Shown: positions 6,762 to 21,232 of the stretch, piece after piece
Layout: each line of letters begins with the position of its first letter
Numbering within the stretch: the first letter of the stretch is position 1
Virus record (IMG/VR): IMGVR_UViG_3300034417_000014
Location: 25,847-89,846 of that record
Source of the DNA: a virus
Direction: 5' to 3' (one strand)
DNA length: 64,000 bases
The notes under the pieces: model-generated
What the model was told of the DNA's origin: nothing
Databases searched by the model: none
The model's input: only the letters and a program-made list of their open reading frames with translations
Translations under genes and position numbers: made by a program

Positions 6762-6764
6762 TGG

Positions 6765-7357: not shown

Positions 7358-7403
7358 GTTAACACTTAAACAAACAACTTAACTAGCAAACGGAGCAACA
7401 GAA

Positions 7404-7784: not shown

Positions 7785-7800
7785 CACAATCCCTCCAACA

Positions 7801-7841: not shown

Positions 7842-7858
7842 TTCACTTTGCTTATAAT
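7830..7858 (+). promoter_or_regulatory. early promoter P17
   Basis: TTGCTC, 17 bp, TATAAT, then ACTTACACACAAAC. Confidence 0.7.
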
Positions 7859-7891
7859 ACTTACACACAAACAGCAAAGGGAACACAAAAA

Positions 7892-8185
7892 ATGACTACT
7901 TATGTTAAACTTGTTAAATGCAATGTTAGCAGCATTTGGGAAGACATGTGTAGCTGCAACTACAACGAGCTGGGCGAGAGCTATACAGTAGCAACAGACG
8001 AAGACGAGGAAATGGTCTACGCTGACGACGTTGTTGTTGACAAAGTAGTAGAAGCTAGTGTAGTAACTATGATTGGCAGCGCGGGCGGGGAAGTACGCTG
8101 TTTTGAAGAGACGCACAAAGTTTTGCTTGACAAAGACGGAAACGTGTTTATTTTAGAAGACGATTTTGAGGAGTATTTTTGCTAA
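7892..8185 (+). CDS. very acidic early protein, unknown
   Basis: 97 residues. A longer frame begins at 7826, but that is upstream of the -10 box; ATG 7892 after AAGGGAAC is preferred. The protein is strongly acidic (DEDEEMVYADDVVVDK; EDDFEEYFC at the end) with a cysteine cluster near residue 20-24. No family recognised. Confidence 0.65.
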   Translation: MTTYVKLVKCNVSSIWEDMCSCNYNELGESYTVATDEDEEMVYADDVVVDKVVEASVVTMIGSAGGEVRCFEETHKVLLDKDGNVFILEDDFEEYFC

Positions 8186-8201
8186 TAGCGTAACAAAGTG
8201 G

Positions 8202-8230
8202 TAGACAACAGGGACGTTGTTTGCTATTAT
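8202..8230 (+). promoter_or_regulatory. early promoter P18 with spacer hairpin
   Basis: GTGG-TAGACA, 17 bp, TATTAT, GTTTACACACTAAA. Spacer ACAAC-AGGGAC-GTTGT. Confidence 0.8.
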
Positions 8231-8262
8231 GTTTACACACTAAAGCAAACGGAGCAGCGCAA

Positions 8263-8406
8263 ATGAAGATCGAAGCATACGGCGTGAAGGGCATGAAGAG
8301 CAAGCAATGGAGCAAAACCTTTGCAAGTGAAGCAGCAATGGAAGCGTGGTGCGAGAAGAACGATGCGCAAGTCCTGGGCTACAGGGAGGCAGAGCAAAGC
8401 AAGTAA
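8263..8406 (+). CDS. 47-residue early protein, unknown
   Basis: ATG 8263 after CGGAGC; a frame opening at 8221 would start inside the promoter. 47 residues, helical, Lys/Ala-rich (GMKSKQWSKTFASEAAMEAW). Single cassette between P18 and P19. Confidence 0.55.
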   Translation: MKIEAYGVKGMKSKQWSKTFASEAAMEAWCEKNDAQVLGYREAEQSK

Positions 8407-8413
8407 ATAATGG

Positions 8414-8442
8414 TAGACTAGCGGGGGAAACCCCGCTATACT
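8414..8442 (+). promoter_or_regulatory. early promoter P19 with spacer hairpin
   Basis: TGG-TAGACT, 17 bp, TATACT, GTCTGCACATTAAA; spacer AGCGGGG-GAAA-CCCCGCT as in P11, P13 and P14. Confidence 0.75.
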
Positions 8443-8465
8443 GTCTGCACATTAAAGGAGCACAC

Positions 8466-8693
8466 ATGGAAACAAAAGTTAAAGACGTATTAAAAACACT
8501 CATGAAGAACCGTTGCAGTGAACTTTCCAGAACGGTTGACGGCCTTGGCAAAAAGATGCGTGAGGCAAAGAACGATCCTGACAAACTAGCAGAAGTCAAG
8601 CTGTTGTATGCTGAGTACAGGGGCAGGCTAGAAGAAGCAAAGAACGGATATCGTCAACTAGAAACTGCAGAACAATTAGCTAAGAACGGTTGA
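8466..8693 (+). CDS. small coiled-coil-like protein
   Basis: 75 residues, almost wholly helical and charged with regular leucines (LKTLMKNRCSELSRTVDGL ... YAEYRGRLEEAKNGY), consistent with a coiled coil. ATG 8466 after GGAG; the earlier frame opening (8346) lies upstream of the promoter. Its TGA stop (8691-8693) is within the -35 of P20. Confidence 0.6.
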   Translation: METKVKDVLKTLMKNRCSELSRTVDGLGKKMREAKNDPDKLAEVKLLYAEYRGRLEEAKNGYRQLETAEQLAKNG

Positions 8694-8718
8694 CTTCCCA
8701 CTTCCATACCGCTATAAT
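8690..8718 (+). promoter_or_regulatory. early promoter P20
   Basis: TTGACT, 17 bp, TATAAT, GTTTACACACTAAA; -35 contains the upstream stop. Confidence 0.8.
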
Positions 8719-8749
8719 GTTTACACACTAAACAAGCGGAGCAACTAGC

Positions 8750-8938
8750 ATGTCCAACAACGTAGCCAAGCAACTAGCAGATAACAAGATCCCGTTTACT
8801 ACTAAGCGCACAATGAGCAACGGGTTCCACGGCACAGTGTTTTTGTTCCCTACAAGATACGCTGCTGTCAAGGCACAGAAGGTTACTGGCCTCACGTGGA
8901 CACGCTACAACAAAGAGTGGCAGTTTACAACCTATTAA
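8750..8938 (+). CDS. small basic protein, unknown
   Basis: 62 residues, basic and aromatic at the end (TWTRYNKEWQFTTY). CGGAGC ribosome site. No family recognised. Confidence 0.6.
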   Translation: MSNNVAKQLADNKIPFTTKRTMSNGFHGTVFLFPTRYAAVKAQKVTGLTWTRYNKEWQFTTY

Positions 8939-8943
8939 TGTGG

Positions 8944-8972
8944 TTGACATGTGGAAAGGATTCCACTATAAT
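8944..8972 (+). promoter_or_regulatory. early promoter P21 with spacer hairpin
   Basis: TTGACA, 17 bp, TATAAT, GTTTACACACTAAG. Spacer GTGGAA-AGGA-TTCCAC is a perfect hairpin. Confidence 0.8.
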
Positions 8973-9003
8973 GTTTACACACTAAGCAACTGAGTACAAG
9001 AAC

Positions 9004-9279
9004 ATGGCAAACCAACTGTGTCAACTAATTGATTTGTTAGGCGTGACATTGACAGACGACAGGATAGGCGTGCATGTTAGAGGTGAGCTAGACATCTACA
9101 TGTTGGTGTTGACAGACAAGGTAGAGTGGCAAGACCCTAATGACCCAACGTGTGGCAACGGTGATGGCTTGCTATACTTCACAGCTAAGGTACAGGCACG
9201 TGACTGGTCAGGCGAGCAGTATGAAGAAACACTCTTATGCGCCTACAGTCAAGAAGAAAACTTCATTTATATTAGTTGA
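9004..9279 (+). CDS. small protein, unknown (91 residues)
   Basis: 91 residues, acidic, beta-rich (GVHVRGELDIYMLVLTD). Its TGA stop (9277-9279) lies inside the -35 of P22. A second frame (9140-9349) through the same bases runs across P22 and was discarded. Confidence 0.6.
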   Translation: MANQLCQLIDLLGVTLTDDRIGVHVRGELDIYMLVLTDKVEWQDPNDPTCGNGDGLLYFTAKVQARDWSGEQYEETLLCAYSQEENFIYIS

Positions 9280-9304
9280 CATTCCTTTCCACTTCCACTA
9301 TAAT
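9276..9304 (+). promoter_or_regulatory. early promoter P22
   Basis: TTGACA, 17 bp, TATAAT, GTTTACATACTAAA; -35 contains the upstream stop. Confidence 0.8.
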
Positions 9305-9336
9305 GTTTACATACTAAAGCAACGGAGCAAAGCAAA

Positions 9337-9528
9337 ATGGCAAAACTAATTACGTTACTGGTGTGTTTGGTTATGGTCATTGGTGGTGGTGGCTTTTTTG
9401 TACACTACGCTAAGGAGTGGATTGAGAAGTGGAACATGGACACTTGGGTAACTGACGTTGTGGTGCTTGGTTGTGCTGCTAACGTGTTTTTTATGGGCTT
9501 CATCCTCGCATACAGCATCTGCTACTAA
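9337..9528 (+). CDS. small membrane protein, two helices
   Basis: 63 residues with hydrophobic segments at about 2-21 and 38-60 separated by a charged linker (KEWIEKW). CGGAG ribosome site. It starts a three-gene unit with the next two ORFs. Confidence 0.6.
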   Translation: MAKLITLLVCLVMVIGGGGFFVHYAKEWIEKWNMDTWVTDVVVLGCAANVFFMGFILAYSICY

Positions 9529-9529
9529 G

Positions 9530-9688
9530 ATGTCAACCTTAAACGTATTACTCCTGGCAGCGGCCATTGTAGTGCTAGTCTCCCGACCGGGTCTAGCACT
9601 GCTTATACTGTTCGTTATAGCGTGTATCAAATGGCCTTTACTGTTTATCATACTGCTAGTAATCCTTGTTATAGGAGCTGGCAAGTGA
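9530..9688 (+). CDS. very hydrophobic 52-residue membrane protein
   Basis: ATG 9530 is chosen because it follows the previous stop by 1 nt (TAAGATG); an earlier start at 9458 would overlap that gene by 70 nt. The 52 residues are almost entirely hydrophobic, with up to three short spans. Stop overlaps the next start (GTGA). Confidence 0.5.
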   Translation: MSTLNVLLLAAAIVVLVSRPGLALLILFVIACIKWPLLFIILLVILVIGAGK

Positions 9689-9882
9689 GCATACGCTACG
9701 TCTACCACAAGGTGAAGGGTGACAGGTTTGAAGGCCCTTCCTACCAATTACTCTGTACCTACTCAGAGAAGACTTTAGCAGAAGGCGAGGCATTTGTCAA
9801 GTCTGCTAGGGAGAAGCTGAGTAAGAAGAACTCCTTCCATTCTATCGTTGTACGCAAAACCAAAGCCCCTGAACACTGGTAA
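9685..9882 (+). CDS. small basic protein, unknown
   Basis: Starting at GTG 9685 (overlapping the previous stop) gives 65 residues; an ATG at 9622 is possible but lies well inside the upstream gene. Basic, mixed alpha/beta (SIRYVYHKVKGDRFEG; REKLSKKN). The three-gene set 9337-9882 probably shares P22. Confidence 0.5.
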   Translation: MSIRYVYHKVKGDRFEGPSYQLLCTYSEKTLAEGEAFVKSAREKLSKKNSFHSIVVRKTKAPEHW

Positions 9883-9986
9883 GCAAAGGCTGTTTAAACG
9901 CTCTACGACGCCCGTACAGCAGTTCTAACCAGAGAAGTGTATCTAAGCAAGCCCCTTGGTCAAAACAGTCTACAGAAACGTTCTAG

Positions 9987-10040
9987 CCTCCAAGACCAAC
10001 CTACAGAAAAAACCTAACCTCCAAGACCAACCTACAGAAA
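9987..10040 (+). repeat. direct repeat, 24-bp core at 31-bp period
   Basis: CCTCCAAGACCAACCTACAG plus AAA occurs at 9987 and again at 10018. It belongs to a dispersed family of 'cctacagaaa' units seen again at about 2308, 2349, 9969, 10301, 10343 and 10489. Confidence 0.7.
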
Positions 10041-10044
10041 TAGG

Positions 10045-10073
10045 TTGACGAACCACTTTAGTTCCAGTAGAAT
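10045..10073 (+). promoter_or_regulatory. early promoter P23
   Basis: TTGACG, 17 bp, TAGAAT, then GTTTATACAGTAAA; a weaker match that follows directly on the repeats. Confidence 0.6.
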
Positions 10074-10105
10074 GTTTATACAGTAAAGCAAGCGGAGTAA
10101 GGCAA

Positions 10106-10357
10106 ATGGCTAAGTTCAAAGTAGGCGACACAGCATACTTGGGCGCAGGCGGCATTTTAGCTAGAGTGACAGACATACAGGAAGGTTGGTATAGTATGGT
10201 CGCAATGGAAGATGGCCTACGACGGAAGAAGGGAGACGCCTTCCGCTGGGAGATAGTATTGGAAGGCATGATGGTTGCTGAAGATAGATTGCCTAACCAA
10301 CCTACAGAAATAGTCTACAGGAATAACCTGACCAAGTCAACCAACCTACAGAAATAG
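10106..10357 (+). CDS. small SH3/KOW-like protein with repeat-derived tail
   Basis: 83 residues. The N-terminus (KFKVGDTAYLGAGGILARVTDI) has the look of a small SH3/KOW-type barrel, an inference from pattern only. The last ~23 residues are encoded by copies of the 'cctacagaaata' repeat, so the C-terminus appears to have been extended by repeat expansion. CGGAG ribosome site after P23. Confidence 0.55.
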   Translation: MAKFKVGDTAYLGAGGILARVTDIQEGWYSMVAMEDGLRRKKGDAFRWEIVLEGMMVAEDRLPNQPTEIVYRNNLTKSTNLQK

Positions 10358-10712
10358 ATTGGAGGTGGAAGATTGTCTGCACAGATTGGTTGGCGAGGTT
10401 GAAATGTGTACACAGATTGGTTGACGACGGAAGAAAGAGCGTGTATATTGATTGGAGGTGGCAGATGACCTGCACAGATATTCTAACCTCCATGCCCGAC
10501 CTGCAGAAATAGATTGACTAACCTAGGAACCTTATGCTCTTTGTTTGTGCATTTCCTTTAGCTGCCTAGCTCTACCTACGCTTGCAGCATTTTAACATCT
10601 TTCCTGCGTCCCTGCAACCAACTCCATCAACACCAACTCCATCAACACCATCAACACCAGTCTTCTTCAACCACCAGCTCTAAGAGGGCCACCAACTAGA
10701 GCTAGTTAAAAA
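10358..10712. repeat. non-coding stretch with short direct and inverted repeats
   Basis: No gene seen. It holds further 'cctacagaaata / cctgcagaaata' units, inverse forms (gattggaggtgg, agattggttg) that could pair with them, and a 15-bp tandem unit CCAACTCCATCAACA at 10618-10632 and 10633-10647 with a partial third copy. Confidence 0.6.
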
Positions 10713-10743
10713 CTGTTACGCTACTATAACAGCAGCGTAACAG
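10713..10743 (-). terminator. terminator of the leftward gene
   Basis: CTGTTACGCT / AGCGTAACAG, perfect 10-bp stem with an 11-nt loop. Read on the minus strand the hairpin is followed by TTTTTAAC. Confidence 0.7.
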
Positions 10744-10758
10744 TATTGCAAGCGTTAT

Positions 10759-11085
10759 TTAAAAGTTATTTAAAGTAGGTTTGCATTGCAAGTGCGCAAA
10801 CTGTACAAAATGTGCTGCATACAGCTCTTTTTGGTCGGCTTCGTCGTGGTGGACGATTGGGCTAAGCACACTACAAACACTAAACACAGTTTCAAACAGT
10901 AGGTCATATTGGTCGCTGGGTAGTTGGTCTATGTACGCTGCAAGTCCCTGGTCGTAGTGCTGCAAGTATTCTACTAGGGAGCGATCGCAAGCCCACCCGT
11001 TAGTAACGACGCTATCCCCTGCTTGCTCCGACATGTTGACAAAGTATACGCTACGTGCTATTGCTACGTTTAACAATGCGTCCAT
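10759..11085 (-). CDS. leftward early protein, unknown (108 residues)
   Basis: The only leftward gene in the early region. ATG at 11085 is preferred over 11118 because AAGGCC sits 8 nt before it on the minus strand. The 108 residues are acidic and mostly helical (DRSLVEYLQHYDQGL; DQYDLLFETVFSV). It has its own promoter (11166-11193) and a rho-independent terminator, which support a real gene. No family recognised. Confidence 0.6.
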   Translation of the reverse strand: MDALLNVAIARSVYFVNMSEQAGDSVVTNGWACDRSLVEYLQHYDQGLAAYIDQLPSDQYDLLFETVFSVCSVLSPIVHHDEADQKELYAAHFVQFAHLQCKPTLNNF

Positions 11086-11165
11086 TTTTTTGGCCTTTTT
11101 TAAAGTAAAATTAAACAACTTTGTTATACAAAACAGCTAGTTGCTTACTGCTTTGTATGTTGTTT

Positions 11166-11193
11166 ATTATACAGTAATGCAAAAACAATGCAA
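11166..11193 (-). promoter_or_regulatory. leftward sigma-70-like promoter
   Basis: Minus strand: TTGCAT, 16 bp, TATAAT. It lacks the GTTTACACACTAAA box of the rightward copies. Confidence 0.55.
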
Positions 11194-11279
11194 GCGTTTT
11201 TTTGCATTTTTTTGCATTTATTTTCACTTTTCTAGGGAGGCACGCATAAAAAATAAAGCAAAATAAAGTAAAATAAAAC

Positions 11280-11308
11280 TTGCAATAAAGTGTAAACGCG
11301 CATATAAT
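11280..11308 (+). promoter_or_regulatory. early promoter P24
   Basis: TTGCAA, 17 bp, TATAAT, then GTTTACACACAAAC. Confidence 0.75.
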
Positions 11309-11341
11309 GTTTACACACAAACAGCAAAGCAGGGCCACAAA

Positions 11342-11512
11342 ATGCAAAACACAAATACGCTTAACATACAAGATTTCCAAATCGACCATTCTAAAGTCGC
11401 CTGCGCGCATAAGCAAGTAACAAAGCAAAAAAGCATTTTGCGCAAAATTATTGCTACGCACTATGCACACATTGCACCTCAATGTCAAGCGTATTTAAAA
11501 ACAATACGTTAA
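11342..11512 (+). CDS. small 'YAHIAPQC' family protein (copy 2)
   Basis: 56 residues, ATG 11342 after GCAGGGCC. It is a paralogue of the 3499 gene: IQDFQID near residue 9 and HYAHIAPQC near residue 41 match, while the middle has diverged. Basic and lysine-rich. The two copies also share the leader 'acacacaaacagcaaagcag'. Function unknown. Confidence 0.65.
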   Translation: MQNTNTLNIQDFQIDHSKVACAHKQVTKQKSILRKIIATHYAHIAPQCQAYLKTIR

Positions 11513-11518
11513 AAAATA

Positions 11519-11551
11519 AAACGCAAGTAGCGTAAAAAACTACTTGCGTTT
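11519..11551 (+). terminator. terminator hairpin fused to promoter P25
   Basis: AAACGCAAGTAG (11519-11530) / CTACTTGCGTTT (11540-11551), perfect 12-bp stem with a 9-nt loop. The 3' arm contains the P25 -35. Confidence 0.65.
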
Positions 11552-11572
11552 ACACTTTAGTCCCAGTATAAT
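11544..11572 (+). promoter_or_regulatory. early promoter P25
   Basis: TTGCGT, 17 bp, TATAAT, then GCTTACACACAAAC. Confidence 0.7.
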
Positions 11573-11605
11573 GCTTACACACAAACAGCAAAGCAGGGCC
11601 ACAAA

Positions 11606-12169
11606 ATGCAAAACGCACAACAAGTAGCAAACATTGTAGCAGCTCTTTTAAACAACGTGTCAACTACTTTTGCGCAAGTTAGCTATAGCACAAAAGTTGC
11701 TACAGCAGCAGCGCACAAAGCTGTAAACATACAAAAACACGTTGTCGCTAACGTGCAATTGTTTAGCAATATCAAAGCTGCAACAAGCGTTTTTACTAAT
11801 GCTGTTAAAAAAAGCGCAAGCGCAATTGCAAGCAATAATGCAGAGGACGTAGCACAATTTACTGCGCAAAGCAACTACTTTACACACACAAATTGCTATA
11901 GCATTGTACAGCATAAAACAAACAACAACTTATACTTATATTGCATATACAACAATGTGCAAAGTAGCGTATACACTATTAATAACGTAATTGCAACCAA
12001 ACAGCAAGTTGCGCAATATTTAACAGCAAGTGCAGCAAAAGCTATGCTAGAGCCTAGCACAACTGTACACAACAAAGCAAGCAATATAACGCATAACGTA
12101 ACAGTGCGTACTATTGCACTAAGCAACATTACTAGCATAACTGCAAACAAAGCGCAAGTTAATTTTTAA
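11606..12169 (+). CDS. Ala/Asn/Thr-rich early protein, unknown
   Basis: 187 residues, the longest of the early set, dominated by Ala, Asn, Thr, Val and Ser. A more ordinary core lies at about residues 88-150 (HTNCYSIVQHKTNNNLYLYC; ATKQQVAQYL). Leader and ATG context match the 11342 gene. It is followed by an 18-bp tandem repeat array. No family recognised. Confidence 0.6.
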   Translation: MQNAQQVANIVAALLNNVSTTFAQVSYSTKVATAAAHKAVNIQKHVVANVQLFSNIKAATSVFTNAVKKSASAIASNNAEDVAQFTAQSNYFTHTNCYSIVQHKTNNNLYLYCIYNNVQSSVYTINNVIATKQQVAQYLTASAAKAMLEPSTTVHNKASNITHNVTVRTIALSNITSITANKAQVNF

Positions 12170-12179
12170 CTGTACAAGT

Positions 12180-12302
12180 GTACAGCACTGTGTATACATA
12201 CAGTGCTGTGCATGTATACAGTAGTGTATGCCTATACAGTGTACGCCCATACAGCACTGTACATGTATACAGCACTGTACATGTATACAGTAGTAGCACG
12301 TA
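12180..12302 (+). repeat. 18-bp tandem repeat array
   Basis: About seven imperfect 18-bp units beginning ATACAG. Units at 12249-12266 and 12267-12284 are identical (ATACAGCACTGTACATGT); those at 12198, 12216 and 12285 are variants and one (12234) is 15 bp. Each unit contains inverted elements (TGTACA, TGTATACA). Confidence 0.8.
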
Positions 12303-12360
12303 GCACACAGGAGAGGAGCTGTCAACCAGGACCTATGCGTAGCACACCAAAAACAGAAAC

Positions 12361-12391
12361 GCAAGCAAAAAATTAAATTTAATTTGCTTGC
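12361..12391 (+). terminator. hairpin fused to promoter P26
   Basis: GCAAGCAAA (12361-12369) / TTTGCTTGC (12383-12391) around an AT-rich palindrome. The 3' arm runs into the P26 -35. Confidence 0.5.
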
Positions 12392-12416
12392 AAAGTGGAA
12401 AAAAAGGCATTATAAT
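12388..12416 (+). promoter_or_regulatory. promoter P26 for the paralogue operon
   Basis: TTGCAA, 17 bp, TATAAT, then ATTTTTATACTAAA. The GTTTACAC part is lost but TACTAAA is kept. It is the only visible promoter for the 14-gene operon. Confidence 0.65.
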
Positions 12417-12422
12417 ATTTTT

Positions 12423-12577
12423 ATACTAAAGTGGAGATACGGTGAGACCTGGCTAGAATCCAAAAATGGTGGAATGGCTGGGGGGTAGGCTTGCTGCGCC
12501 ACTGAAAAACCGTTTCCTAATCCTATAGGGCCCAATCCTAATCCTAATCCTATAGGCTACCCTTATAGCATAGCCCT
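12423..12577 (+). other. long 5' leader with CCTAAT repeats
   Basis: Roughly 155 nt between the P26 start and the first frame, against about 30 nt for other early genes. TCCTAATCCTATAGG occurs at 12515-12529 and 12542-12556 with extra TCCTAA units between them. No gene or known riboswitch recognised. Confidence 0.45.
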
Positions 12578-12991
12578 GTGTCAACATTAGACTCACTGTT
12601 CTTGGTACACTGCGAAAATTTTTTACTAATTTTTATGGAAACCGTGTATATGCCTCCTAACGTTAGAATGATCACATTTTATGACAAGTACTCTGAACAA
12701 CTATCAGCCAAACGTCAAGAGGCTAGAAAACTGTTCCCGCTACTGTTATCCTTACATCATATAGCATGGGCGGACCGTCCCCAGTTTCATGAACGTTTCC
12801 GGACGCACTACAGGGAAGCGGTTATTAACATTCCGGAAACTTCTGACAACGCTCCGTTTATACGCTGCAACTCAAAAGAAATTGCCTTTTTACTGTATAT
12901 GCAGTTTGGCGTAGCATTGTGGGAAGACAGTTCCTTAAACGACACGTATACGTCAGACCCCAATAATTATCAGGATGGGTCCAAGCTGTGA
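12578..12991 (+). CDS. paralogue array member 1
   Basis: 137 residues from GTG 12578; ATG 12635 or 12650 are possible and would give about 118 or 113 residues. No start has a strong ribosome site. Most divergent of the array, but it keeps the pattern FIRCNSKEIAFLLYMQFG, which aligns with the 'RY.R...D.M.L.LK.G' core of the others. Stop overlaps the next start by 4 nt. Function unknown. Confidence 0.55.
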   Translation: MSTLDSLFLVHCENFLLIFMETVYMPPNVRMITFYDKYSEQLSAKRQEARKLFPLLLSLHHIAWADRPQFHERFRTHYREAVINIPETSDNAPFIRCNSKEIAFLLYMQFGVALWEDSSLNDTYTSDPNNYQDGSKL

Positions 12992-13284
12992 AAAATTCCG
13001 CGCCACAAACCAGTGTCTATTATTATGTCACTCTCGATGGCTTAAACGACAAAGTGTTAAGAGAATTCAAGAGTTACTTTTTGGGCGTGTCTCCAATAGC
13101 GGCAGCACTAACTGTAAACTGGCAATGGCATTCTCAAGTTGAGGATGAAAATAGATATGTGCGTTATGGGAGAATTACTGTCACTGAATCTGACCGCATG
13201 TTCTTAAATTTGAAGCACGGTCTTAATGACCCTGACTTTACTAAAAAATGTGCGGGCTTACTTTACGAACGGGTGTGGTTATGA
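12988..13284 (+). CDS. paralogue array member 2
   Basis: 98 residues from GTG 12988. It has the N-terminal YYYV strand, a central helix and the core RYVRYGRITVTESDRMFLNL followed by KHG. It overlaps both neighbours by 4 nt, which suggests coupled translation. No family outside this array recognised. Confidence 0.7.
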   Translation: MKNSAPQTSVYYYVTLDGLNDKVLREFKSYFLGVSPIAAALTVNWQWHSQVEDENRYVRYGRITVTESDRMFLNLKHGLNDPDFTKKCAGLLYERVWL

Positions 13285-13556
13285 AATATTTCTTTCTTAG
13301 GGCTTCTGCTAACTCCAGTAACGATTCTGAAGTGTTGCATTTTATTGAATCTGATATTTCTGGAATTACTCCAATCCATATAGAAATATCTGAAGATAGA
13401 TTCCTATCTTGGACAGAAGGATCTAATACTAGATATATTCGGTATGTTAGACTTACCTTAACTGACACCGACTTTATGTATATGTCTTTAAAAGTTGCGC
13501 AACCCGCTACTTCCCGGATTGTTTCCGGATTGCATTTTAGACCCGTAAGGAAATAA
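13281..13556 (+). CDS. paralogue array member 3
   Basis: ATG 13281 overlaps the previous stop (ATGA), so the upstream opening at 13248 is discarded; 91 residues. Core: RYIRYVRLTLTDTDFMYMSL then K. The N-terminus MKYFFLRA matches the YY-x-R start of the family. Confidence 0.7.
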   Translation: MKYFFLRASANSSNDSEVLHFIESDISGITPIHIEISEDRFLSWTEGSNTRYIRYVRLTLTDTDFMYMSLKVAQPATSRIVSGLHFRPVRK

Positions 13557-13557
13557 A

Positions 13558-13842
13558 ATGGCCCACGAATATTATGTCCGCTCTTATGTGGCTGATCCCG
13601 ATAATTTAGGAGAAGTGTTTTCCTATAAATTTGTGCAGGAAGTTATTGTGGGCATTGCTCCCCTAAAGATAGAACTGTCTAAGCCCAGGATGTTAACTGC
13701 CCACGGCACCTCCAATACTAGAAAATATGTTCGGTATGTTAAACTTACCTTAACTAACGAAGACTTTATGTTGCTCAAACTTAAAGGTAAGGAATCCGCA
13801 GATGATTTAATAATATTGGATATGGACTATTATGAAATTTGA
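13558..13842 (+). CDS. paralogue array member 4
   Basis: 94 residues, preceded by AAGGAAATAAA, the clearest ribosome site in the array. Starts MAHEYYVRS; core KYVRYVKLTLTNEDFMLLKL then KG. Its closest relative is member 3 (both have SNTR just before the core). Confidence 0.7.
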   Translation: MAHEYYVRSYVADPDNLGEVFSYKFVQEVIVGIAPLKIELSKPRMLTAHGTSNTRKYVRYVKLTLTNEDFMLLKLKGKESADDLIILDMDYYEI

Positions 13843-14134
13843 ATCCCAATATTATTATATCCGCATACCATCTCGCATTGCTGAAATTGCTCCAGTTGCA
13901 GCAGTTGCGTTTAAAAAATTTAGTTCCGCCAGATGTGAGATATCCAACGAGTTTTTCCTAGCAATCCGTGATTCCTCTAGTGATGCGGCGTTTGTTAGAT
14001 ATGCCCGCATACTAGTTTCTCCCCAAGAATATATGCTGTTGACTTTGAAGAATGGCATCTGTTATAGTATAGAAAAGCCTAATAGCAATTGTGCTGGAAT
14101 AGAGTATAATGATTATTGTATAGGGGAACTATAA
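13832..14134 (+). CDS. paralogue array member 5
   Basis: 100 residues, overlapping member 4 by 11 nt. N-terminal YYYIRIPSR; core AFVRYARILVSPQEYMLLTL then KNG. Ends with two cysteines about 15 residues apart. Function unknown. Confidence 0.7.
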   Translation: MKFESQYYYIRIPSRIAEIAPVAAVAFKKFSSARCEISNEFFLAIRDSSSDAAFVRYARILVSPQEYMLLTLKNGICYSIEKPNSNCAGIEYNDYCIGEL

Positions 14135-14449
14135 ATGGATAAGCCAGATCTGAAAACTTTCTGCTTTAGGGTAGTGCAAGCAGTTACTCCAGATCGAGCA
14201 TATCTAGGCAAAGTAGATTGGGTGCCCAAAATTAAAGAAGTATTGGGCGAAGTAGTTCCACTCCAATGTGAGATATCTGAAAAGGAATATAATGTCCTGA
14301 ACCAAGATTGGTCTGCGGGCTTTGCCAGATATGTTAGGTTGGTTGTTTCCGAAACTGATTATATGTTTCTAGTGCTCAAATATACTGACGAATATTCCAA
14401 AACTCCTTTTTATAATGAAGGTATTAGATACCAGAAAGTCGATTTATGA
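14135..14449 (+). CDS. paralogue array member 6
   Basis: 104 residues, starting directly after the previous stop. N-terminal FCFRVVQAVTP, central helix, core GFARYVRLVVSETDYMFLVL then K. Stop overlaps the next start (ATGA). Confidence 0.7.
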   Translation: MDKPDLKTFCFRVVQAVTPDRAYLGKVDWVPKIKEVLGEVVPLQCEISEKEYNVLNQDWSAGFARYVRLVVSETDYMFLVLKYTDEYSKTPFYNEGIRYQKVDL

Positions 14450-14748
14450 AATATTACTATTGCTGTGCTTGGACTGATGTTAGTCCGGATGTCGACTTCC
14501 ATGCCTATGAAAATGTTGTTAATGTATTTATTGACTGCTTTATAGGAGACAATATTAAGCCAATAGCAGTGCAAGTTTCTGCAAAGACTTTTCCGGAAAT
14601 TGGCCGAGATTATAGATTTGCATCTTATATTAAATTTACCTTGACAGACGAAGATTATATGTATGTTAAGTTAAAGAAAGGTGACCCATATGAATCGGCA
14701 ACTGCTGTCCACAGTATGGATTTTATTGACATAGAGATTCTAGAATGA
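14446..14748 (+). CDS. paralogue array member 7
   Basis: 100 residues. Starts MKYYYCCAW; core RFASYIKFTLTDEDYMYVKL then KKG. Overlaps both neighbours by 4 nt. Confidence 0.7.
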   Translation: MKYYYCCAWTDVSPDVDFHAYENVVNVFIDCFIGDNIKPIAVQVSAKTFPEIGRDYRFASYIKFTLTDEDYMYVKLKKGDPYESATAVHSMDFIDIEILE

Positions 14749-15017
14749 AAGAATATTATTGCCGCATCTCGATACCTGAGCTTAATCCGACTGTGGCCGA
14801 AGTTAAAGCCAAAGTCGAAGAAATTATTGGTCAGATAGAACCAATAACTATCCAGTTGTCCGTGGAGTATTTTTCCGAATGGGATGACCATGCGTATGCA
14901 ATGTATATTAGGTTACTGTTGCAAGATATAGATTATATGCAACTCAAACTTAAACGGGAAGATACTATTAAGTTTGCGCATTCTATTAAAACTTTGCAAT
15001 ACCGGAATTTAGAATGA
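14745..15017 (+). CDS. paralogue array member 8
   Basis: 90 residues. Starts MKEYYCRISIPE, central helix VAEVKAKVEEIIGQI, core AMYIRLLLQDIDYMQLKL then KR. A good minimal example of the family. Overlaps both neighbours by 4 nt. Confidence 0.7.
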   Translation: MKEYYCRISIPELNPTVAEVKAKVEEIIGQIEPITIQLSVEYFSEWDDHAYAMYIRLLLQDIDYMQLKLKREDTIKFAHSIKTLQYRNLE

Positions 15018-15307
15018 CTATTGAATATATTAAGCCATTCCCAGGGCCTAGTCTAGATAAAGTAAGTTGCCAAATGCTTGACTTTTTTGAAGGCATTGCT
15101 TATAAAGAATTGTGGATATCTTATGCTTACCTAGACAACGACTTTAGGCCGTATTATTTTGCAACTGTTGTCCTCCAAGATGAAACTGATCTGTGCCTGT
15201 GCTTAATGAAGTTTGGCAAGGGAGAAAGCAATATGCAGTATACTGAGTTAAAGATAAGTAGAATTGACGAGGCGTGGCTAAAAGAGTACCCGTATGAACG
15301 AACCTAA
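15014..15307 (+). CDS. paralogue array member 9
   Basis: 97 residues, more divergent: the core is YYFATVVLQDETDLCLCLMK followed by FGKG. It overlaps member 8 by 4 nt and member 10 by 14 nt. Confidence 0.65.
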   Translation: MTIEYIKPFPGPSLDKVSCQMLDFFEGIAYKELWISYAYLDNDFRPYYFATVVLQDETDLCLCLMKFGKGESNMQYTELKISRIDEAWLKEYPYERT

Positions 15308-15566
15308 ATTATATGCAGTGTATGTGTCTAAGGATGATGAAGCATCTTTCCAGATATTTTGTCGCGACAATATTAAATGGCGTACTGTCCATTCGACTAC
15401 TATAAATCCCCAAATGAAAGCTAGGAAGTATATTATAGAATATACCGATGCAGAAGATGCCTTCCTATTAAATTTAAGATATGGGAAGTCCCGTGTTATT
15501 AATGGGGAATTGTTAGATATGCTCAAGAGAAATTATTTCTCTAAAATTGTGTGTACTCGAGACTAA
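15294..15566 (+). CDS. paralogue array member 10
   Basis: 90 residues. Core KYIIEYTDAEDAFLLNLRYG. The N-terminus is YAVYVSKDDEASF rather than the YY-x-R form, marking the shift to the second half of the array. Confidence 0.65.
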   Translation: MNEPKLYAVYVSKDDEASFQIFCRDNIKWRTVHSTTINPQMKARKYIIEYTDAEDAFLLNLRYGKSRVINGELLDMLKRNYFSKIVCTRD

Positions 15567-15570
15567 ACTT

Positions 15571-15762
15571 ATGTCTAAAGCTAAAAGGAGATTTGAGATA
15601 CCTACTGTGAAAGAAGAAGAGTTCTCAGAGTATCTCGAGTTGATTTTGCCCAAAGCCAAAGTATATAGATTCTGGGATCCAGGTAAAGATAATATTATGT
15701 ACTATGTCTCAGACGATGACGAGATGGGTTTACTTGCCCTAAGATTAAAATATGACAAATAA
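15571..15762 (+). CDS. paralogue array member 11
   Basis: ATG 15571 follows the previous stop by 4 nt and is preferred to 15547, giving 63 residues. It pairs with member 12: LPKAKVYRF here, FPKAKIYYD there; core DDDEMGLLALRLKY. Short, and probably lacks one strand of the others. Confidence 0.6.
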   Translation: MSKAKRRFEIPTVKEEEFSEYLELILPKAKVYRFWDPGKDNIMYYVSDDDEMGLLALRLKYDK

Positions 15763-15991
15763 TATTATTATGAATTCTTGGAAGCACCGAATGCAGTTTG
15801 TGTTTCCGTTTGGATCTAGTCAGGGTCAGGGCGATGCCATTGCCTTTAACGAGTATGTAAAAGCTACTTTTCCCAAAGCTAAAATTTATTACGACGGCAT
15901 TTTTGAATTTACTGTTGTCATGGATAATGACCATGACGCACTTGTACTAGGTATAAAATATGGACACAGAAAAAAGACTCAGAATTATTAA
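15752..15991 (+). CDS. paralogue array member 12
   Basis: 79 residues from 15752, or shorter from ATG 15770 or 15791. Contains FPKAKIYYD and the core DNDHDALVLGIKYG. Overlaps member 11 by 11 nt and member 13 by 32 nt, the largest overlap in the array. Confidence 0.6.
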   Translation: MTNNIIMNSWKHRMQFVFPFGSSQGQGDAIAFNEYVKATFPKAKIYYDGIFEFTVVMDNDHDALVLGIKYGHRKKTQNY

Positions 15992-16232
15992 AGTTGAAAC
16001 CAGGAATGAGTATTGGTCTGCGACTGGGTTTCTCCAATCCCTAATAGGGGATGCTGACTATAACTTTGTATTCTCAGACCACTATGAAAGAGAATGCCAA
16101 AAAGAGTCGTATTATATGGTTTCTGGATATCCGCATTCCGACGGCGCTTTAATTATAGTGCAGTCTTCTGACGATGATATTATGGAGCAAATTGACGAAA
16201 GGTTTGATCCTAAACTTCCCAGGTTTCTTTAA
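15960..16232 (+). CDS. paralogue array member 13
   Basis: 90 residues. It forms a pair with member 14: LRIIKVETRNEYW here, IRIIRADGNAEFW there, both followed by a helix ending in IG. The C-terminal motif is weakened to SSDDDIMEQIDERF. Confidence 0.6.
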   Translation: MDTEKRLRIIKVETRNEYWSATGFLQSLIGDADYNFVFSDHYERECQKESYYMVSGYPHSDGALIIVQSSDDDIMEQIDERFDPKLPRFL

Positions 16233-16498
16233 TGAGTATTATAGGTATGTCCCCAAAGAAAGAAGAAATTAGAATTATTAGAGCAGATGGCAATGCTGAG
16301 TTCTGGCAGATTATTGGGAAAGTGCAAAAGATTATCGGTAGTTATCCATGGAAGGAAGCTATGTATTGCATAACTAAATCCCCAGCAGGCCAGACTGAGC
16401 TAGGATTGATTATGGTTATCTCATCTAATAAGAATGTTATATTGGCTGTTGATCTCCAATTTAATAGAATAATATGCCCAAGTAATGAGCTATATTGA
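16232..16498 (+). CDS. paralogue array member 14 (last)
   Basis: 88 residues, start overlapping the previous stop by 1 nt. Paired with member 13; C-terminal motif ISSNKNVILAVDLQF. A terminator-like hairpin follows, then the convergent fibre operon. Confidence 0.6.
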   Translation: MSIIGMSPKKEEIRIIRADGNAEFWQIIGKVQKIIGSYPWKEAMYCITKSPAGQTELGLIMVISSNKNVILAVDLQFNRIICPSNELY

Positions 16499-16524
16499 AA
16501 ACCGCTGGGGCGCGCTGAAAGAGA

Positions 16525-16549
16525 GGTGGTTCCGGCCCACCCCTTTTTC
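16525..16549 (+). terminator. probable terminator of the paralogue operon
   Basis: GGTGG (16525-16529) / CCACC (16537-16541) then CCTTTTTCTT. A short stem but a good T-run, in the gap between convergent operons. Confidence 0.4.
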
Positions 16550-18451
16550 TTATTTCTGTTTGGCTTCTAGTGCTGACAACCTTGCGTCAATTTCTTTTAA
16601 GGCTTCAACAATTAATCCAACCATGTTACCGTATGCAACTGACTTGATTCCGTCTTCATTTTCATGAACGGCTTCAGGCAACACTTTCTCAACATCTTGG
16701 GCGATCAAGCCTGTGCCGCGTGTATTAATGTCTGTACGTGTAAATGTTGCTCCAATTAATTGCTTAACTTTATCAACAGCGTCTGTAATTTGAACAATAT
16801 CTGTTTTAAGGCTTCTGTCAGAGAACGCAGTTACGTCACCACGGGCCCAAAAGTTTCCAGAAACATCAGTAGAAATTCTAACCCCAACTGAGGTATCGTA
16901 TAAGCCTACTGCTCCAGCTGGCTGTCCATAAAAATACACTGTCCTGCCTGACATGTTCCAGCCAAGATCCAGTTCGCCACCCGCAGCATTAAAGAACAGC
17001 GAGCCTTGCATTGTGTCGCCTGACTTTCTAACAAACGCTGACGAATCTAATCCATCTAACAAGTCTGCGTCAAGTCCAGAACCAGATCCATCAGAACTTA
17101 AAATCTTGGACATAATGTCACCAGCACTATATGAGCTTGCTGGTAAGAAATATGAACTATCTCTGCCGTCTAACAAGTCTGCGTCAAGTCCAGAACCAGA
17201 TCCCATATATCCCGAATGCCAAACAACTCTTGCTGCACCAGGATAGTTATATGTGAGCTGTGAGCCATTGCCAACTAACTGTAATGGTTGTGATGCAACA
17301 CCAACATACACTCCACCGGAAGAACCAATGTCTAATACAGTTTCATAAGCAGACGACTGGTTTAGCAAGTTAATCGCTTGAGCATTTAATACACCGCCAG
17401 CAGATAATGTTATTGCACCCGTGCTAAGATTCACGTTCATTAACGATCGTGCGCCGCCGCCACGGTATGAGCTGACCAACGACAATGTCTCGCCAGCAAT
17501 ACCAAACTGCGCAGTGTTGTTCAATGCATCTGTAAATCTAACAACAGGTGTTGTGCCAGTACCATTTGAAACAATTAAGTCTTGCCCTTTAGCATAATAC
17601 TTCGTCGCAAGAGTTGATCCAGCTTCAAATATATTTTGTACATACAAGCTCTTATATTCATTAGCAGCAGAACCCAAGTCATACGTTATGTCTGTTGTTG
17701 GAATTAAGTTCTTGTTAATAGTAATGTTGTTTCCACTTACTGACGACAATGCGTTTGTGTTGGTAGTTGTTGCAGTAATTGCAGTAAATGGTGCAGCAGC
17801 TTTACCAAGAGAAACAGTACCTGACGGAACTATACCAACAGCATCCGATTGAAGGATTGCTGTACCTAAAGTAAGTTGTCCAGATATAGTTGAATTTTGA
17901 GAGTACACATTTGACCAAGCATTACTTGTTCGTCCAAGTGTCTGACTAGCAGTTAATGGATAAAATGCTCCGCCAGTAATTGTTGCATCGCCCGTAACAG
18001 CAAGTGCAATTGTGCCGTCTACGTTTGGACTTTCAATTGTAAATATGCCGTGAGTTGCATATAAGTAGTGCCATCTCTTGAGAGATGATCCTAAATCAAC
18101 TGATGCATCTATAGCTGGAATAACAGGAGTGGATACGTTTTGTAAAGATCCACCAACAGGTTGCCAACCAATAAATGACTCTGATGTGATGTCGTTGGCA
18201 TCAACGGGATCAGCACCTTGGTATTGCATTAGTCTATCGTCGTTTGTGTTATACCAAAGTTGACCTTTAATTGCGCCACGTGGAGGAGTTCCAGATGCGA
18301 AATTCTCCAGCAAACGTAAAGAATCCTGTGCAGCATATGCACCATAATTTTTTACGTTTCGACCACGCAACGACAAACTATATGTTTGATCGAGCGTTAA
18401 ATCTGGAACCGCATGTGTTGCTCCGGAAGATCTTTGAATATTATATGTCAT
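16550..18451 (-). CDS. tail fibre with C-terminal S74 chaperone domain
   Basis: 633 residues. The N-terminal ~330 residues are a diverged version of the two upstream fibres (PPRGAIKGQLWYN; LGSSLKRWHYLYA). The middle has GDTM-type fibre repeats (KSGDTMQGSLFF) and DADLLDG units. The last ~90 residues are an intramolecular chaperone of the peptidase S74 type: SDRSLKTDI with Ser 544 and Lys 549 in the S-x4-K spacing of the self-cleaving dyad, then GLIAQDVEKVLPEAV. In this family the domain trimerises the fibre and cuts itself off before Ser. It is the last gene of the leftward operon and overlaps the assembly-protein gene upstream by 4 nt. Confidence 0.85.
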   Translation of the reverse strand: MTYNIQRSSGATHAVPDLTLDQTYSLSLRGRNVKNYGAYAAQDSLRLLENFASGTPPRGAIKGQLWYNTNDDRLMQYQGADPVDANDITSESFIGWQPVGGSLQNVSTPVIPAIDASVDLGSSLKRWHYLYATHGIFTIESPNVDGTIALAVTGDATITGGAFYPLTASQTLGRTSNAWSNVYSQNSTISGQLTLGTAILQSDAVGIVPSGTVSLGKAAAPFTAITATTTNTNALSSVSGNNITINKNLIPTTDITYDLGSAANEYKSLYVQNIFEAGSTLATKYYAKGQDLIVSNGTGTTPVVRFTDALNNTAQFGIAGETLSLVSSYRGGGARSLMNVNLSTGAITLSAGGVLNAQAINLLNQSSAYETVLDIGSSGGVYVGVASQPLQLVGNGSQLTYNYPGAARVVWHSGYMGSGSGLDADLLDGRDSSYFLPASSYSAGDIMSKILSSDGSGSGLDADLLDGLDSSAFVRKSGDTMQGSLFFNAAGGELDLGWNMSGRTVYFYGQPAGAVGLYDTSVGVRISTDVSGNFWARGDVTAFSDRSLKTDIVQITDAVDKVKQLIGATFTRTDINTRGTGLIAQDVEKVLPEAVHENEDGIKSVAYGNMVGLIVEALKEIDARLSALEAKQK

Positions 18452-18885
18452 TTGTTATCCTGTAGAAAATCTGGTTTCTCTGGTAGTTGCACATCTGGGA
18501 AACCTGGCTCGTTTGTGATGTTTCTTAATTCTTTTCTGTATGATTGCAAGTCTGCAAACTGTGTTGCTGACAAAGTTGTTTTTGCCTTTTCTTCTTTTTC
18601 ATCCCGGTGCCTAGCAACTAAGCCATCAGTTTTTGCTAATAAAATGTCTCTCTGATCTCTTAACACCACTGCTTTCATTTCAGTAGGTAACACAGCTTCT
18701 TTTCTGCCATCTACTAGCACTGCTTCGCCGTCAACAATACTTAATCTTTTATCTTTAGATATTGCTACAATTGCTTCTTGATGAAACTCTTCTGTGATCT
18801 CAACTGCGTCGTCAGGCATCTTGTCAACTGGCGTTATCGCGTCAAGATAAAATCCGTATTGTTCTTCGCTAAAATAGATTTTCAT
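18448..18885 (-). CDS. tail fibre assembly chaperone (Tfa-like), copy 2
   Basis: 145 residues. The C-terminal pattern YRKELRNITNEPGFPDVQLP is typical of tail fibre assembly proteins of the Caudo_TAP/Tfa group, which bind the tip of the fibre made just upstream. It directly follows the fibre gene 20804-18885 and is a diverged copy of 20813-21229 (both have ARHRD-K and GFP/DFP-x-V-x-LP). Overlaps its fibre partner by 1 nt. Confidence 0.75.
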   Translation of the reverse strand: MKIYFSEEQYGFYLDAITPVDKMPDDAVEITEEFHQEAIVAISKDKRLSIVDGEAVLVDGRKEAVLPTEMKAVVLRDQRDILLAKTDGLVARHRDEKEEKAKTTLSATQFADLQSYRKELRNITNEPGFPDVQLPEKPDFLQDNK

Positions 18886-20804
18886 TAATTGTATCTTCCT
18901 ATTGCAAACCAGTCGTATGTCGTGTATGTGTTGCCGTTGCCGTTAGATATGGCAAAGTTAGTACCTGTGTGGTACAGTATTCGAATAAAGTTACCTTCGT
19001 TACTATAGTTTTCTCTGTTTGTTAACTGTATGCTATACACCGCAGTAAATGTCCCATTAAATGGTACTGTCTGGTTGTTCGGTCCTGCTGCCAGGTTGTA
19101 GTTTCCCCATTGCATCATCAACCCGCTCGAGAACAAAAGTATTCCATTTTGGGAGATTGAAGAATAGCCGCCACCGCTCCACCAATTAACTAACGAGTCG
19201 ACATAGTCTTTGTTTGTTGCATCTCCAGCGGAAGACGGTTGTCCGAGACCGTTGATCTGAAGCCCCGACATATTTAACGAGCCGGTCATTGTGTCGCCAG
19301 TTTTACTTACTTTTGAGTTCAGTGATCCTGACATTCCAGCAACAGCAGAGTCAACGTATTGCTTCGGAGCTGCATGTAATCCTGCTGATGGGTTTGCGTT
19401 TAGTGTTAGGTACCCACCCATAGTATCGCCAGATGTGTTAATATATCTAGCATCTAGATCACCTAAATGATATCCATCAACAGTATCTGCGTCAAGGCCG
19501 GAACCATGCCCCATCAGGCCGGAGTGCCAAACAGTTTTTAATCCTGCACCATAATCATATCCCAGTGCTGGCACGTTCCCAAGTATCACTGACGATCTCG
19601 ACCCAATACCAAAATACACTTTTCCATCTGGCGCAATTTGTACAACTACTTCGCCCGCTGCATTTGTGTTTGGCTTTAGTCTTAATTTGTTCGTTATTAC
19701 ATCACCATAAGTAACTAAGTCGTTCGAATTAATATCTATGTAAAGCAGCGGCTTAGCTACTCCACCACGATAAGAACCTACTATTCTTGCTGCTTCTCCA
19801 GCAACATCAAAGTACGCTAATGTGTTGTTCACATTGTCTTTTGCGATAAATTGAGGCGAGTCTGAATTGGGTGGACTTGCTTGAAGAACAATATCTCCGG
19901 AAAACGTTGTCGATGGCTGACCTGCTTGAATATATTTAGTTGATAACGGAACACCGTTTTCTACAAAATTATTTGCATATACGTTGTTAAATTTCTTAGC
20001 AGAAGAACCTAAGTCAAATGTTATATTGGTCGATGGAACTAAATTACTTGTTAGTCCACCAGAACCAACAAACAGAGAAGCAGCGTCCACGCTATTGACA
20101 TACAACGATGCAAACCGCTGTGCGTTTTTACCAAGATTAACAATTCCATCTGGAAGGATTGTGTTAGGAACAAATGCGTCCGATGTAAGAGAAACGGGAT
20201 TGGTATTTGCACCCAGTGTTAATAAATTAGTAACCTTTGCAGTGTTTACCCAGACTTCGTTCCACGTCTTATCTGTTTTTCCTAAATTTATTGCATCAGG
20301 GTTAGTTGGGTAAAATGTTCCTGCAGCAATTGTTGCGTCGCCAGTTACTTGAAGTGCAATTGTCCCATCAGTATTTGGGTCTGAGGATGAATTAAATATG
20401 CCGTGTACACCATAAATTCTATGGAACCGTTTTGTTGCACTACCTATGTTTTTTGTTGCATCAGTAGATGGCAACAAGTCTGAAGTGATATTAGTAAAAT
20501 CACTACCAACTGCTTGCCAATGAGTTAATGCAACACTATTGTTGTCATTCGGTCCAACTGGGTCTGCCCCGATGTATTGCATCAATACATTGTTTGCACT
20601 ATTGAACCAAAGCTGGCCTTTAATTGCTCCTCTAGGAGGAACAGTGTTGGAAAAGTTTTCCAAATGTCTCAAATTGTCTTGCGCTACAGACTGGCCGAAG
20701 TTAGTGGAATCTCTTCCAAGCAGGGCGGCAGTGTATGTATAATCAATAACTAAGTCATTGACTACATGCGCAGTTCCATTTGATTTTGTAATATTATACG
20801 GCAT
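18885..20804 (-). CDS. tail fibre, copy 2
   Basis: 639 residues. Its first ~345 residues are nearly the same as those of the 21233-23164 fibre; the C-terminal third differs and ends in the aromatic TYDWFAIGRYN typical of Tfa-dependent fibre tips. It contains GDTM repeats (TSGDTMGGYLTL; KTGDTMTGSLNM) found in trimeric fibre shafts. No S74 domain, consistent with the separate chaperone downstream. Confidence 0.8.
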   Translation of the reverse strand: MPYNITKSNGTAHVVNDLVIDYTYTAALLGRDSTNFGQSVAQDNLRHLENFSNTVPPRGAIKGQLWFNSANNVLMQYIGADPVGPNDNNSVALTHWQAVGSDFTNITSDLLPSTDATKNIGSATKRFHRIYGVHGIFNSSSDPNTDGTIALQVTGDATIAAGTFYPTNPDAINLGKTDKTWNEVWVNTAKVTNLLTLGANTNPVSLTSDAFVPNTILPDGIVNLGKNAQRFASLYVNSVDAASLFVGSGGLTSNLVPSTNITFDLGSSAKKFNNVYANNFVENGVPLSTKYIQAGQPSTTFSGDIVLQASPPNSDSPQFIAKDNVNNTLAYFDVAGEAARIVGSYRGGVAKPLLYIDINSNDLVTYGDVITNKLRLKPNTNAAGEVVVQIAPDGKVYFGIGSRSSVILGNVPALGYDYGAGLKTVWHSGLMGHGSGLDADTVDGYHLGDLDARYINTSGDTMGGYLTLNANPSAGLHAAPKQYVDSAVAGMSGSLNSKVSKTGDTMTGSLNMSGLQINGLGQPSSAGDATNKDYVDSLVNWWSGGGYSSISQNGILLFSSGLMMQWGNYNLAAGPNNQTVPFNGTFTAVYSIQLTNRENYSNEGNFIRILYHTGTNFAISNGNGNTYTTYDWFAIGRYN

Positions 20805-20812
20805 GTATTATC

Positions 20813-21229
20813 CTATAAAAAATCTGGTTTTGCAGGCAAGTCTACGTTTGGAAAATCCTTATCATCAGTAATGTCTCGCAAGTCTTTTCGATATTGCAAT
20901 AATATTTTAAACTGAGCTTCAGTTAATGTAGTTTTTTCCTTCATGTCTTTCTGATCACGGTGTCTTGCAACTGCGCCGTCTGTTTGTTCTAATAATTTTT
21001 TCCTGGCAGCTTTTATGTCAGATTCTTTAAGATAAGAGTCGGAAAATTTTGGAATTTCTACCAATACTGGCAAAGCGCCAACTCTGTGCTTCAAATCAAA
21101 ACCAGCCTGTTTCTTTATCGTAAAACTTTCCCACTGTGCCTCTGAGATGCTAATTGCATCCTCTGGAATGACAACATGGATGTCTGAGTGATAAAAACCT
21201 CTTGTGGATGGTGCGTAAAAGTATGTCAT
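20813..21229 (-). CDS. tail fibre assembly chaperone (Tfa-like), copy 1
   Basis: 138 residues, starts MTYFYAPSTRGFYHSDIH and ends with LQYRKDLRDITDDKDFPNVD then LP, the Tfa/Caudo_TAP pattern. It lies directly after the fibre 21233-23164 and presumably matures that fibre. Its N-terminus differs from copy 2, which may reflect partner specificity. Confidence 0.75.
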   Translation of the reverse strand: MTYFYAPSTRGFYHSDIHVVIPEDAISISEAQWESFTIKKQAGFDLKHRVGALPVLVEIPKFSDSYLKESDIKAARKKLLEQTDGAVARHRDQKDMKEKTTLTEAQFKILLQYRKDLRDITDDKDFPNVDLPAKPDFL

Positions 21230-21232
21230 ATT

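What the first reader, a model, noticed from the sequence alone, without database searches (positions are those of the whole stretch)
12578..16498. A 14-gene array of divergent small paralogues translated as one overlapping chain
Seen: fourteen consecutive 60-137 residue genes, most overlapping by 1-14 nt. Members 1-12 share a C-terminal pattern (D-x-x-M/L-x-L-x-L-K/R-x-G, usually after RY-V/I-R-x-T-L-T); members 13-14 keep a weakened form and are a close pair, as are 11-12 and 3-4. All have one strand-helix-strand plan. No known family was recognised. Inference: serial tandem duplication followed by fast divergence, as expected for genes under an arms race (anti-defence proteins, toxin blockers, decoys) or for subunits of a heteromeric assembly. 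It is transcribed from a single early-type promoter.
Basis: partly seen in the sequence, partly recalled or inferred. Interest (0 to 1): 0.88.

Follow-up and report, generated by a model that had tools for sequence, protein, structure and literature searches.

The report
Array of duplicated small phage genes
A large bacterial virus carries a chain of fourteen tiny overlapping genes, at least seven and probably eleven of them copies of one another, belonging to a protein group missing from the standard family libraries; distant relatives form similar chains in other giant phages, and they may be a kit of small proteins aimed at the host cell.

Summary
The array is real, but less uniform than described. 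All 14 frames look coding; 10 of 13 junctions overlap. Members 2-8 are one clear paralogous family (AlphaFold: beta-alpha-beta-beta-alpha-beta, pLDDT 76). Members 9-12 join them only through a profile built from a second tandem array in the same contig (contig bases 128-4227, outside the window). Members 13-14 form a separate pair; member 1 is unlinked. PHROGs, Pfam, PDB sequences, named phages and viral contigs gave no homologue of array 1. The second array does have relatives: small proteins ending in a D-A-M-x-F-K-L-R-W-like helix, 36 in the parts examined of Sinorhizobium jumbo phage Phosso (2.8 expected) and tandem overlapping chains in large viral contigs; representatives match neither PHROGs nor Pfam. 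Array 1 itself fails that signature and profile, so I treat it as a diverged sister lineage, not a member. In one pair of related megaphages homologous chains show purifying selection (pN/pS about 0.13), so ongoing positive selection is not supported. Most likely function: a co-expressed set of accessory, host- or defence-directed proteins. This is inferred, not shown. The duplication claim stands; the arms-race claim is unproven.

The parts
12388..12416 (+). putative sigma70-like promoter of the array (TTGCAA-17-TATAAT)
   Evidence: 10 of 12 consensus matches; differs from the early-type cassette TNGACN-N17-TATAATGTTTACAYAC seen 26 times upstream
12417..12577 (+). leader of about 160 nt with two exact copies of TCCTAATCCTATAGG (12515, 12542)
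   Evidence: role unknown
12578..12991 (+). member 1, 137 aa; not linked to the family by sequence
   Evidence: ORF and codon score; no profile link
12988..13284 (+). member 2, 98 aa, core family
   Evidence: HMM 93.6 bits with the 2-8 profile
13281..13556 (+). member 3, 91 aa from ATG 13281, core family
   Evidence: pairs with member 4 at 9e-16
13558..13842 (+). member 4, 94 aa, core family
13832..14134 (+). member 5, 100 aa, core family
14135..14449 (+). member 6, 104 aa, core family
14446..14748 (+). member 7, 100 aa, core family; modelled beta-alpha-beta-beta-alpha-beta
   Evidence: AlphaFold2 pLDDT 76, pTM 0.69
14745..15017 (+). member 8, 90 aa, core family
15014..15307 (+). member 9, 97 aa; link weak
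   Evidence: array-2 profile, shuffle P 0.076; motif P 0.05-0.11
15294..15566 (+). member 10, 90 aa; linked through array 2
   Evidence: array-2 profile 11.7 bits, shuffle P 0.003
15571..15762 (+). member 11, 63 aa; linked through array 2; weak pair with member 12
15752..15991 (+). member 12, 79 aa; linked through array 2; weak pair with member 11
   Evidence: AlphaFold2 model unusable
15960..16232 (+). member 13, 90 aa; pair with 14, not linked to the rest
   Evidence: E 4e-6 to member 14; no array-2 link
16232..16498 (+). member 14, 88 aa; pair with 13
16525..16541 (+). terminator-like hairpin followed by a T run, between the array and the convergent tail-fibre genes

Best explanation
A multi-gene accessory operon of a T4-like jumbo phage. 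Shown by sequence: seven genes (members 2-8) are tandem paralogues of about 95 aa with a predicted beta-alpha-beta-beta-alpha-beta (ferredoxin-like order) fold; members 9-12 are probably more distant relatives; a second array in the same genome carries related proteins and ties the whole, indirectly, to an uncharacterised set of small phage proteins that forms overlapping tandem chains in other giant phages. Inferred from sequence: one transcript from the promoter at about 12388 to the terminator at about 16540, with translation passed on by stop-start overlaps, so the products are made together. Inferred, not tested: each paralogue keeps the scaffold and varies its surface to bind a different host or defence protein soon after infection; new members arise by unequal exchange between neighbours and are then kept by purifying selection.
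For: Paralogy of 2-8 and fold. Second array of 14 small genes, six at E down to 2e-14, in the same contig; a profile from five of its short proteins scores members 2-8 and 9-12 above 76 annotated or promoter-linked control genes (P 6e-5 and 6e-4) and above shuffles. Comparable chains in Sinorhizobium phage Phosso, with 36 signature proteins against 2.8 expected in the 389 kb examined. Tandem chains of 3-6 in large viral contigs, motif within 14 residues of the C-terminus in 54 of 54 ORFs. The array lies outside the structural block, beside a region rich in small genes with strong sigma70-like promoters. The nearest named relative, PA5oct, has another set of small overlapping genes at the same place, as expected for a locus with exchangeable accessory content. 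L095, which shares the early-type promoter sequence, has a different paralogue chain next to helicase and primase genes; in T4 the stretch between primase and helicase holds dmd, tifA and adfA, called an anti-toxin-antitoxin island (PMC9391042).
Against: No member has a known function or a homologue of known function. No expression data. Purifying selection in the homologous megaphage chains fits any conserved function and does not speak for an arms race. L095's proteins are not detectably related to array 1, and no profile matches the T4 anti-defence proteins. The link from array 1 to the wider signature set runs only through array 2: a profile of that set made without this genome finds array 2 but not members 2-8.
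Confidence: 0.42

Rival explanations
1. Subunits of a hetero-oligomer: paralogous subunits diverged to form a ring, cage or filament from one polycistronic message, which would explain the coupled translation.
For: Stop-start overlaps favour balanced synthesis; gene order is conserved across related megaphage chains.
Against: Copy number and content differ strongly between phages; isoelectric points range from 4.5 to 9.0 without visible pairing; tight overlaps also occur between structural genes of this phage.
Confidence: 0.15
2. Nucleic-acid-binding proteins (RRM-like use of the ferredoxin-like scaffold) acting in phage replication or RNA metabolism.
For: Predicted scaffold; basic/aromatic strand RYVRLTL before the last long helix; homologous chains lie next to topoisomerase II genes in megaphages, and the L095 chain next to helicase and primase.
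Against: Several members are acidic (pI 4.5-5.6); no RRM family hit; Foldseek to PDB finds only weak ferredoxin-like matches, TM below 0.5.
Confidence: 0.15
3. Near-neutral tandem duplicates, kept by recombination and without individual functions.
For: Deep divergence, no orthologues found, lineage-restricted.
Against: Codon usage fits the genome in all 14, no broken copies in the array, and homologous chains in relatives are under purifying selection (pN/pS 0.13).
Confidence: 0.08
4. Mixed operon: only members 2-8 are true paralogues, and 1 and 9-14 are unrelated small genes that happen to sit with them. (This concerns composition and could be true together with any of the functional readings.)
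For: No direct significant pairwise similarity of 1, 9 and 10 to 2-8; motif test not significant for 11-14.
Against: An independent array-2 profile supports 9-12 as a group (Fisher 8e-6); for 1, 13 and 14 the same test supports this rival.
Confidence: 0.2

Closest known systems
Undescribed phage small-protein set with C-terminal D-A-M-x-F-K-L-R-W signature (jumbo phage Phosso and large viral contigs), delimited here
   Same: Size, overlapping tandem chains, signature at the start of the last helix after a strand; array 2 of the same genome matches its profile (P 1e-6)
   Different: Members 2-8 have D-x-M-x-L-x-L-K, followed by a further C-terminal stretch of roughly 15-30 residues, and do not match the profile
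T4 anti-toxin-antitoxin island (dmd, tifA, adfA between genes 61 and 41)
   Same: Small accessory phage proteins in a cluster; tifA copy number can rise under selection (PMC9391042)
   Different: Not known to be paralogues of each other; no profile match to the array proteins
PA5oct small-gene operon EST35_0106-0121 (Wroclawvirus)
   Same: Same place, before the convergent tail genes; small overlapping genes
   Different: No significant similarity to the array or clear paralogy among its genes
Ferredoxin-like fold proteins (ribosomal S6, CutA, ACT domains)
   Same: Order of strands and helices
   Different: TM-scores 0.3-0.4, no sequence relation; not a family assignment

Membership tests
D-A-M-x-F-K-L-R-W small-protein set (delimited here) | small protein of roughly 50-180 aa | tested here: met
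   63-137 aa
D-A-M-x-F-K-L-R-W small-protein set (delimited here) | F-K-L-x-W-type motif within about 14 residues of the C-terminus | tested here: not met
   Members 2-8 carry D-x-M-x-L-x-L-K further from the end; the motif count reports no array-1 cluster
D-A-M-x-F-K-L-R-W small-protein set (delimited here) | match to a profile made from other phages | tested here: not met
   Members 2-8 P 0.7; 9-12 P 0.037, borderline; array 2 of the same contig P 1e-6. Array 1 is therefore not filed as a member
D-A-M-x-F-K-L-R-W small-protein set (delimited here) | tandem chain of overlapping paralogues | tested here: met
   10 of 13 junctions overlap; 2-8 paralogous
Ferredoxin-like fold | beta-alpha-beta-beta-alpha-beta order | tested here: met
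   AlphaFold2 model of member 7; predicted, not solved; one short extra helix before the last strand
Ferredoxin-like fold | structural superposition with a known member (TM above 0.5) | tested here: not met
   Best TM to the query about 0.3-0.4 in PDB; model of moderate confidence
Any PHROG or Pfam family | HMM match at E 1e-3 or better | tested here: not met
T4-type anti-defence proteins (Dmd, TifA, AdfA) | sequence homology | tested here: not met
   All scores at noise level
Anti-defence proteins in general | neutralises a bacterial defence system | not testable with these tools
   Needs infection assays

The most novel reading that the evidence does not exclude
Jumbo phages use an undescribed scaffold, a beta-alpha-beta-beta-alpha mini-protein, as a modular kit: dozens of diverged copies per genome, made from translationally chained operons, each aimed at a different host or defence target; array 1 is a lineage-specific branch of that kit.
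Probability: 0.3. Interest if true: 0.82.

Novelty: new variant of a known kind. Interest (0 to 1): 0.6.

Why it matters
Much of a jumbo phage genome is small genes without a name. If many are copies of one scaffold, they become a single question: solve one structure, find one target, and then ask how targets change along the chain. The signature found here gives a simple way to find such chains (36 signature proteins in the parts of Phosso examined), and Phosso, a cultured phage of a laboratory-tractable host, makes the question testable.

Tried and rejected
Direct homologue searches for array 1 found nothing: tblastn in named phages with all 14 proteins joined and with the family consensus; peptide-pattern scans of viral and genome contigs; profile search in 26 related virus records and in L095. 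PA5oct's syntenic operon was tested as a homologue and rejected. L095's chain was tested against arrays 1 and 2 and is not detectably related. A8 profile hits in PA5oct and Paride run through five stop codons and were discarded. Weak PHROG and Pfam hits (E 0.02-0.2) were treated as noise. The member 12 model (pLDDT 47) was not searched. Foldseek against viral models gave nothing at E 1e-3. A closer search for array 2 in viral contigs and in named phages also failed. Literature searches found no report of such arrays; the library lacks most subscription journals.
Full report
What the window is. It is bases 25847-89846 of an 89.8 kb IMG/VR contig of a T4-like phage: late sigma factor, SbcCD-like nuclease, portal, baseplate and tail-fibre genes. 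Its portal is 64% identical to Pseudomonas jumbo phage PA5oct and relatives. Host unknown.

The observation. Fourteen + strand ORFs run from 12578 to 16498. In each, the annotated frame has the best codon score of all six frames. Ten of 13 junctions overlap, by 1 to 32 nt; the others are 0, +1 and +4. Tight packing is not special in this phage: its structural genes do the same.

Which members are related. Members 2-8 find each other with phmmer (E 1e-4 to 1e-15) and form a clean HMM family (80-112 bits; next ORF in all searched DNA 5.7 bits). 13-14 is a pair (4e-6) and 11-12 a weak pair (3e-4), while 1, 9 and 10 have no significant direct link. A motif model from 2-8 gives at best P 0.02 for member 10. 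So the claim of one pattern over 12 genes does not hold by direct comparison.

A second array. Searching the whole contig for paralogues uncovered another chain, contig bases 128-4227 on the minus strand, outside the window and near the contig end: 14 small genes, six of 122-132 aa at E down to 2e-14 ending GFKSKADVLMFKLAxP-like, and shorter ones ending D/E-x-M-x-I-x-L-K-Y-G-like. An HMM from five short array-2 proteins puts members 10, 7, 11 and 4 among its best outside hits in 1552 ORFs. Against 76 annotated or promoter-linked control genes the P-values are 6e-5 for members 2-8 and 6e-4 for 9-12; against shuffles 2e-6 and 8e-6 (Fisher); members 1, 13, 14 show nothing. The five training proteins were grouped by their similarity to each other, not by array 1, although I had already noticed the likeness of their tails to the array-1 motif; each single score is weak.

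Elsewhere. Sinorhizobium phage Phosso (469 kb, portal 49%) holds comparable chains. Counting small ORFs with a C-terminal F-K-L-x-W-like motif gives 36 in the 389 kb of Phosso examined against 2.8 in shuffled proteins, but no clear excess in the parts examined of Atu_ph07, PA5oct and XaC1, a slight one in CBB (6 against 2.9), and no hits listed for Vibrio phage 2.275. A DNA pattern for D-A-M-x-F-K-L-R-W found 51 stretches in viral contigs; in 54 of 54 ORFs the motif ends within 14 residues of the C-terminus, and several contigs, many of 100-465 kb, have chains of 3-6 or more. None of 26 representatives matches PHROGs or Pfam or a PDB sequence. A profile from these (without this genome) recovers array 2 (P 1e-6) but not members 2-8. 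Array 1 is therefore linked to the set only through array 2 and is not filed as a member.

Fold. AlphaFold2 on the 2-8 alignment gives beta-alpha-beta-beta-alpha-beta, pLDDT 76, pTM 0.69; the shared motif lies where strand 3 passes into helix 2. Foldseek finds only weak ferredoxin-like matches. The member 12 model failed.

Selection. Array 1 has no orthologue. In two related megaphage contigs with the same gene order, the chain has pooled pN/pS 0.13 (eight genes, dN/dS 0.02-0.18 each) with pS about 0.25, while the neighbouring topoisomerase fragment is identical in protein with pS 0.05. This is one pair of contigs. It suggests constrained proteins in a locus that exchanges DNA more than its neighbour, not ongoing positive selection.

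Regulation. A 10/12 sigma70-like site at 12388-12416 and a terminator-like hairpin at 16525-16541 bound the unit. The 26 early-type cassettes upstream share TNGACN-N17-TATAATGTTTACAYAC-like sequence and nearly all sit about 30 nt before an ATG; the array's promoter is a diverged form serving 14 genes. 'Early' is therefore likely but not shown.

Mechanism. The best-supported reading is a battery of accessory proteins directed at the host. The context argument is indirect: the locus differs in content from the nearest named relative, lies among small early-type genes, and L095, which shares the promoter sequence, keeps a different paralogue chain beside helicase and primase, where T4 has its anti-toxin-antitoxin genes (PMC9391042). 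No step from protein to target is shown.

Noticed in passing
contig G000 bases 128-4227 (locus L002), outside the window: A second tandem array of 14 small, mostly overlapping genes on the minus strand, near the contig end; six long paralogues end in GFKSKADVLMFKLAxP-like sequence.
   Followed up: yes
window 1569-9304 and contig bases about 7900-24900: 26 near-identical sigma70-like promoter cassettes, all on the + strand, nearly all about 30 nt before the ATG of a small gene; several have a perfect hairpin (AGCGGGGGAAACCCCGCT) as the spacer between -35 and -10.
   Followed up: partly
L095:3087-5640: A viral contig sharing the exact promoter core TATAATGTTTACACACTAAA carries a different chain of about seven overlapping paralogues (Y-x-F-G-D-x-T-T-x-W) next to helicase and primase genes.
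   Followed up: partly
window 16550-23164: Three paralogous tail-fibre genes in a row, separated by two paralogous tail-fibre assembly genes.
   Followed up: no
window 12163-12294: Degenerate 18-nt tandem repeats (TACAGCACTGTGCATACA-like) upstream of the array promoter.
   Followed up: no
Phosso PV764938.1, bases 612-11159 and 391869-393356: Chains of small overlapping genes, some with tRNA genes between them; 36 proteins with the F-K-L-x-W-like C-terminus in the 389 kb examined.
   Followed up: partly
L242, L255, L267, L269, L277, L247: Large viral contigs with long chains of signature proteins, two of them (L242, L247) next to topoisomerase II genes; synonymous divergence higher in the chain than in the neighbouring gene.
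   Followed up: partly
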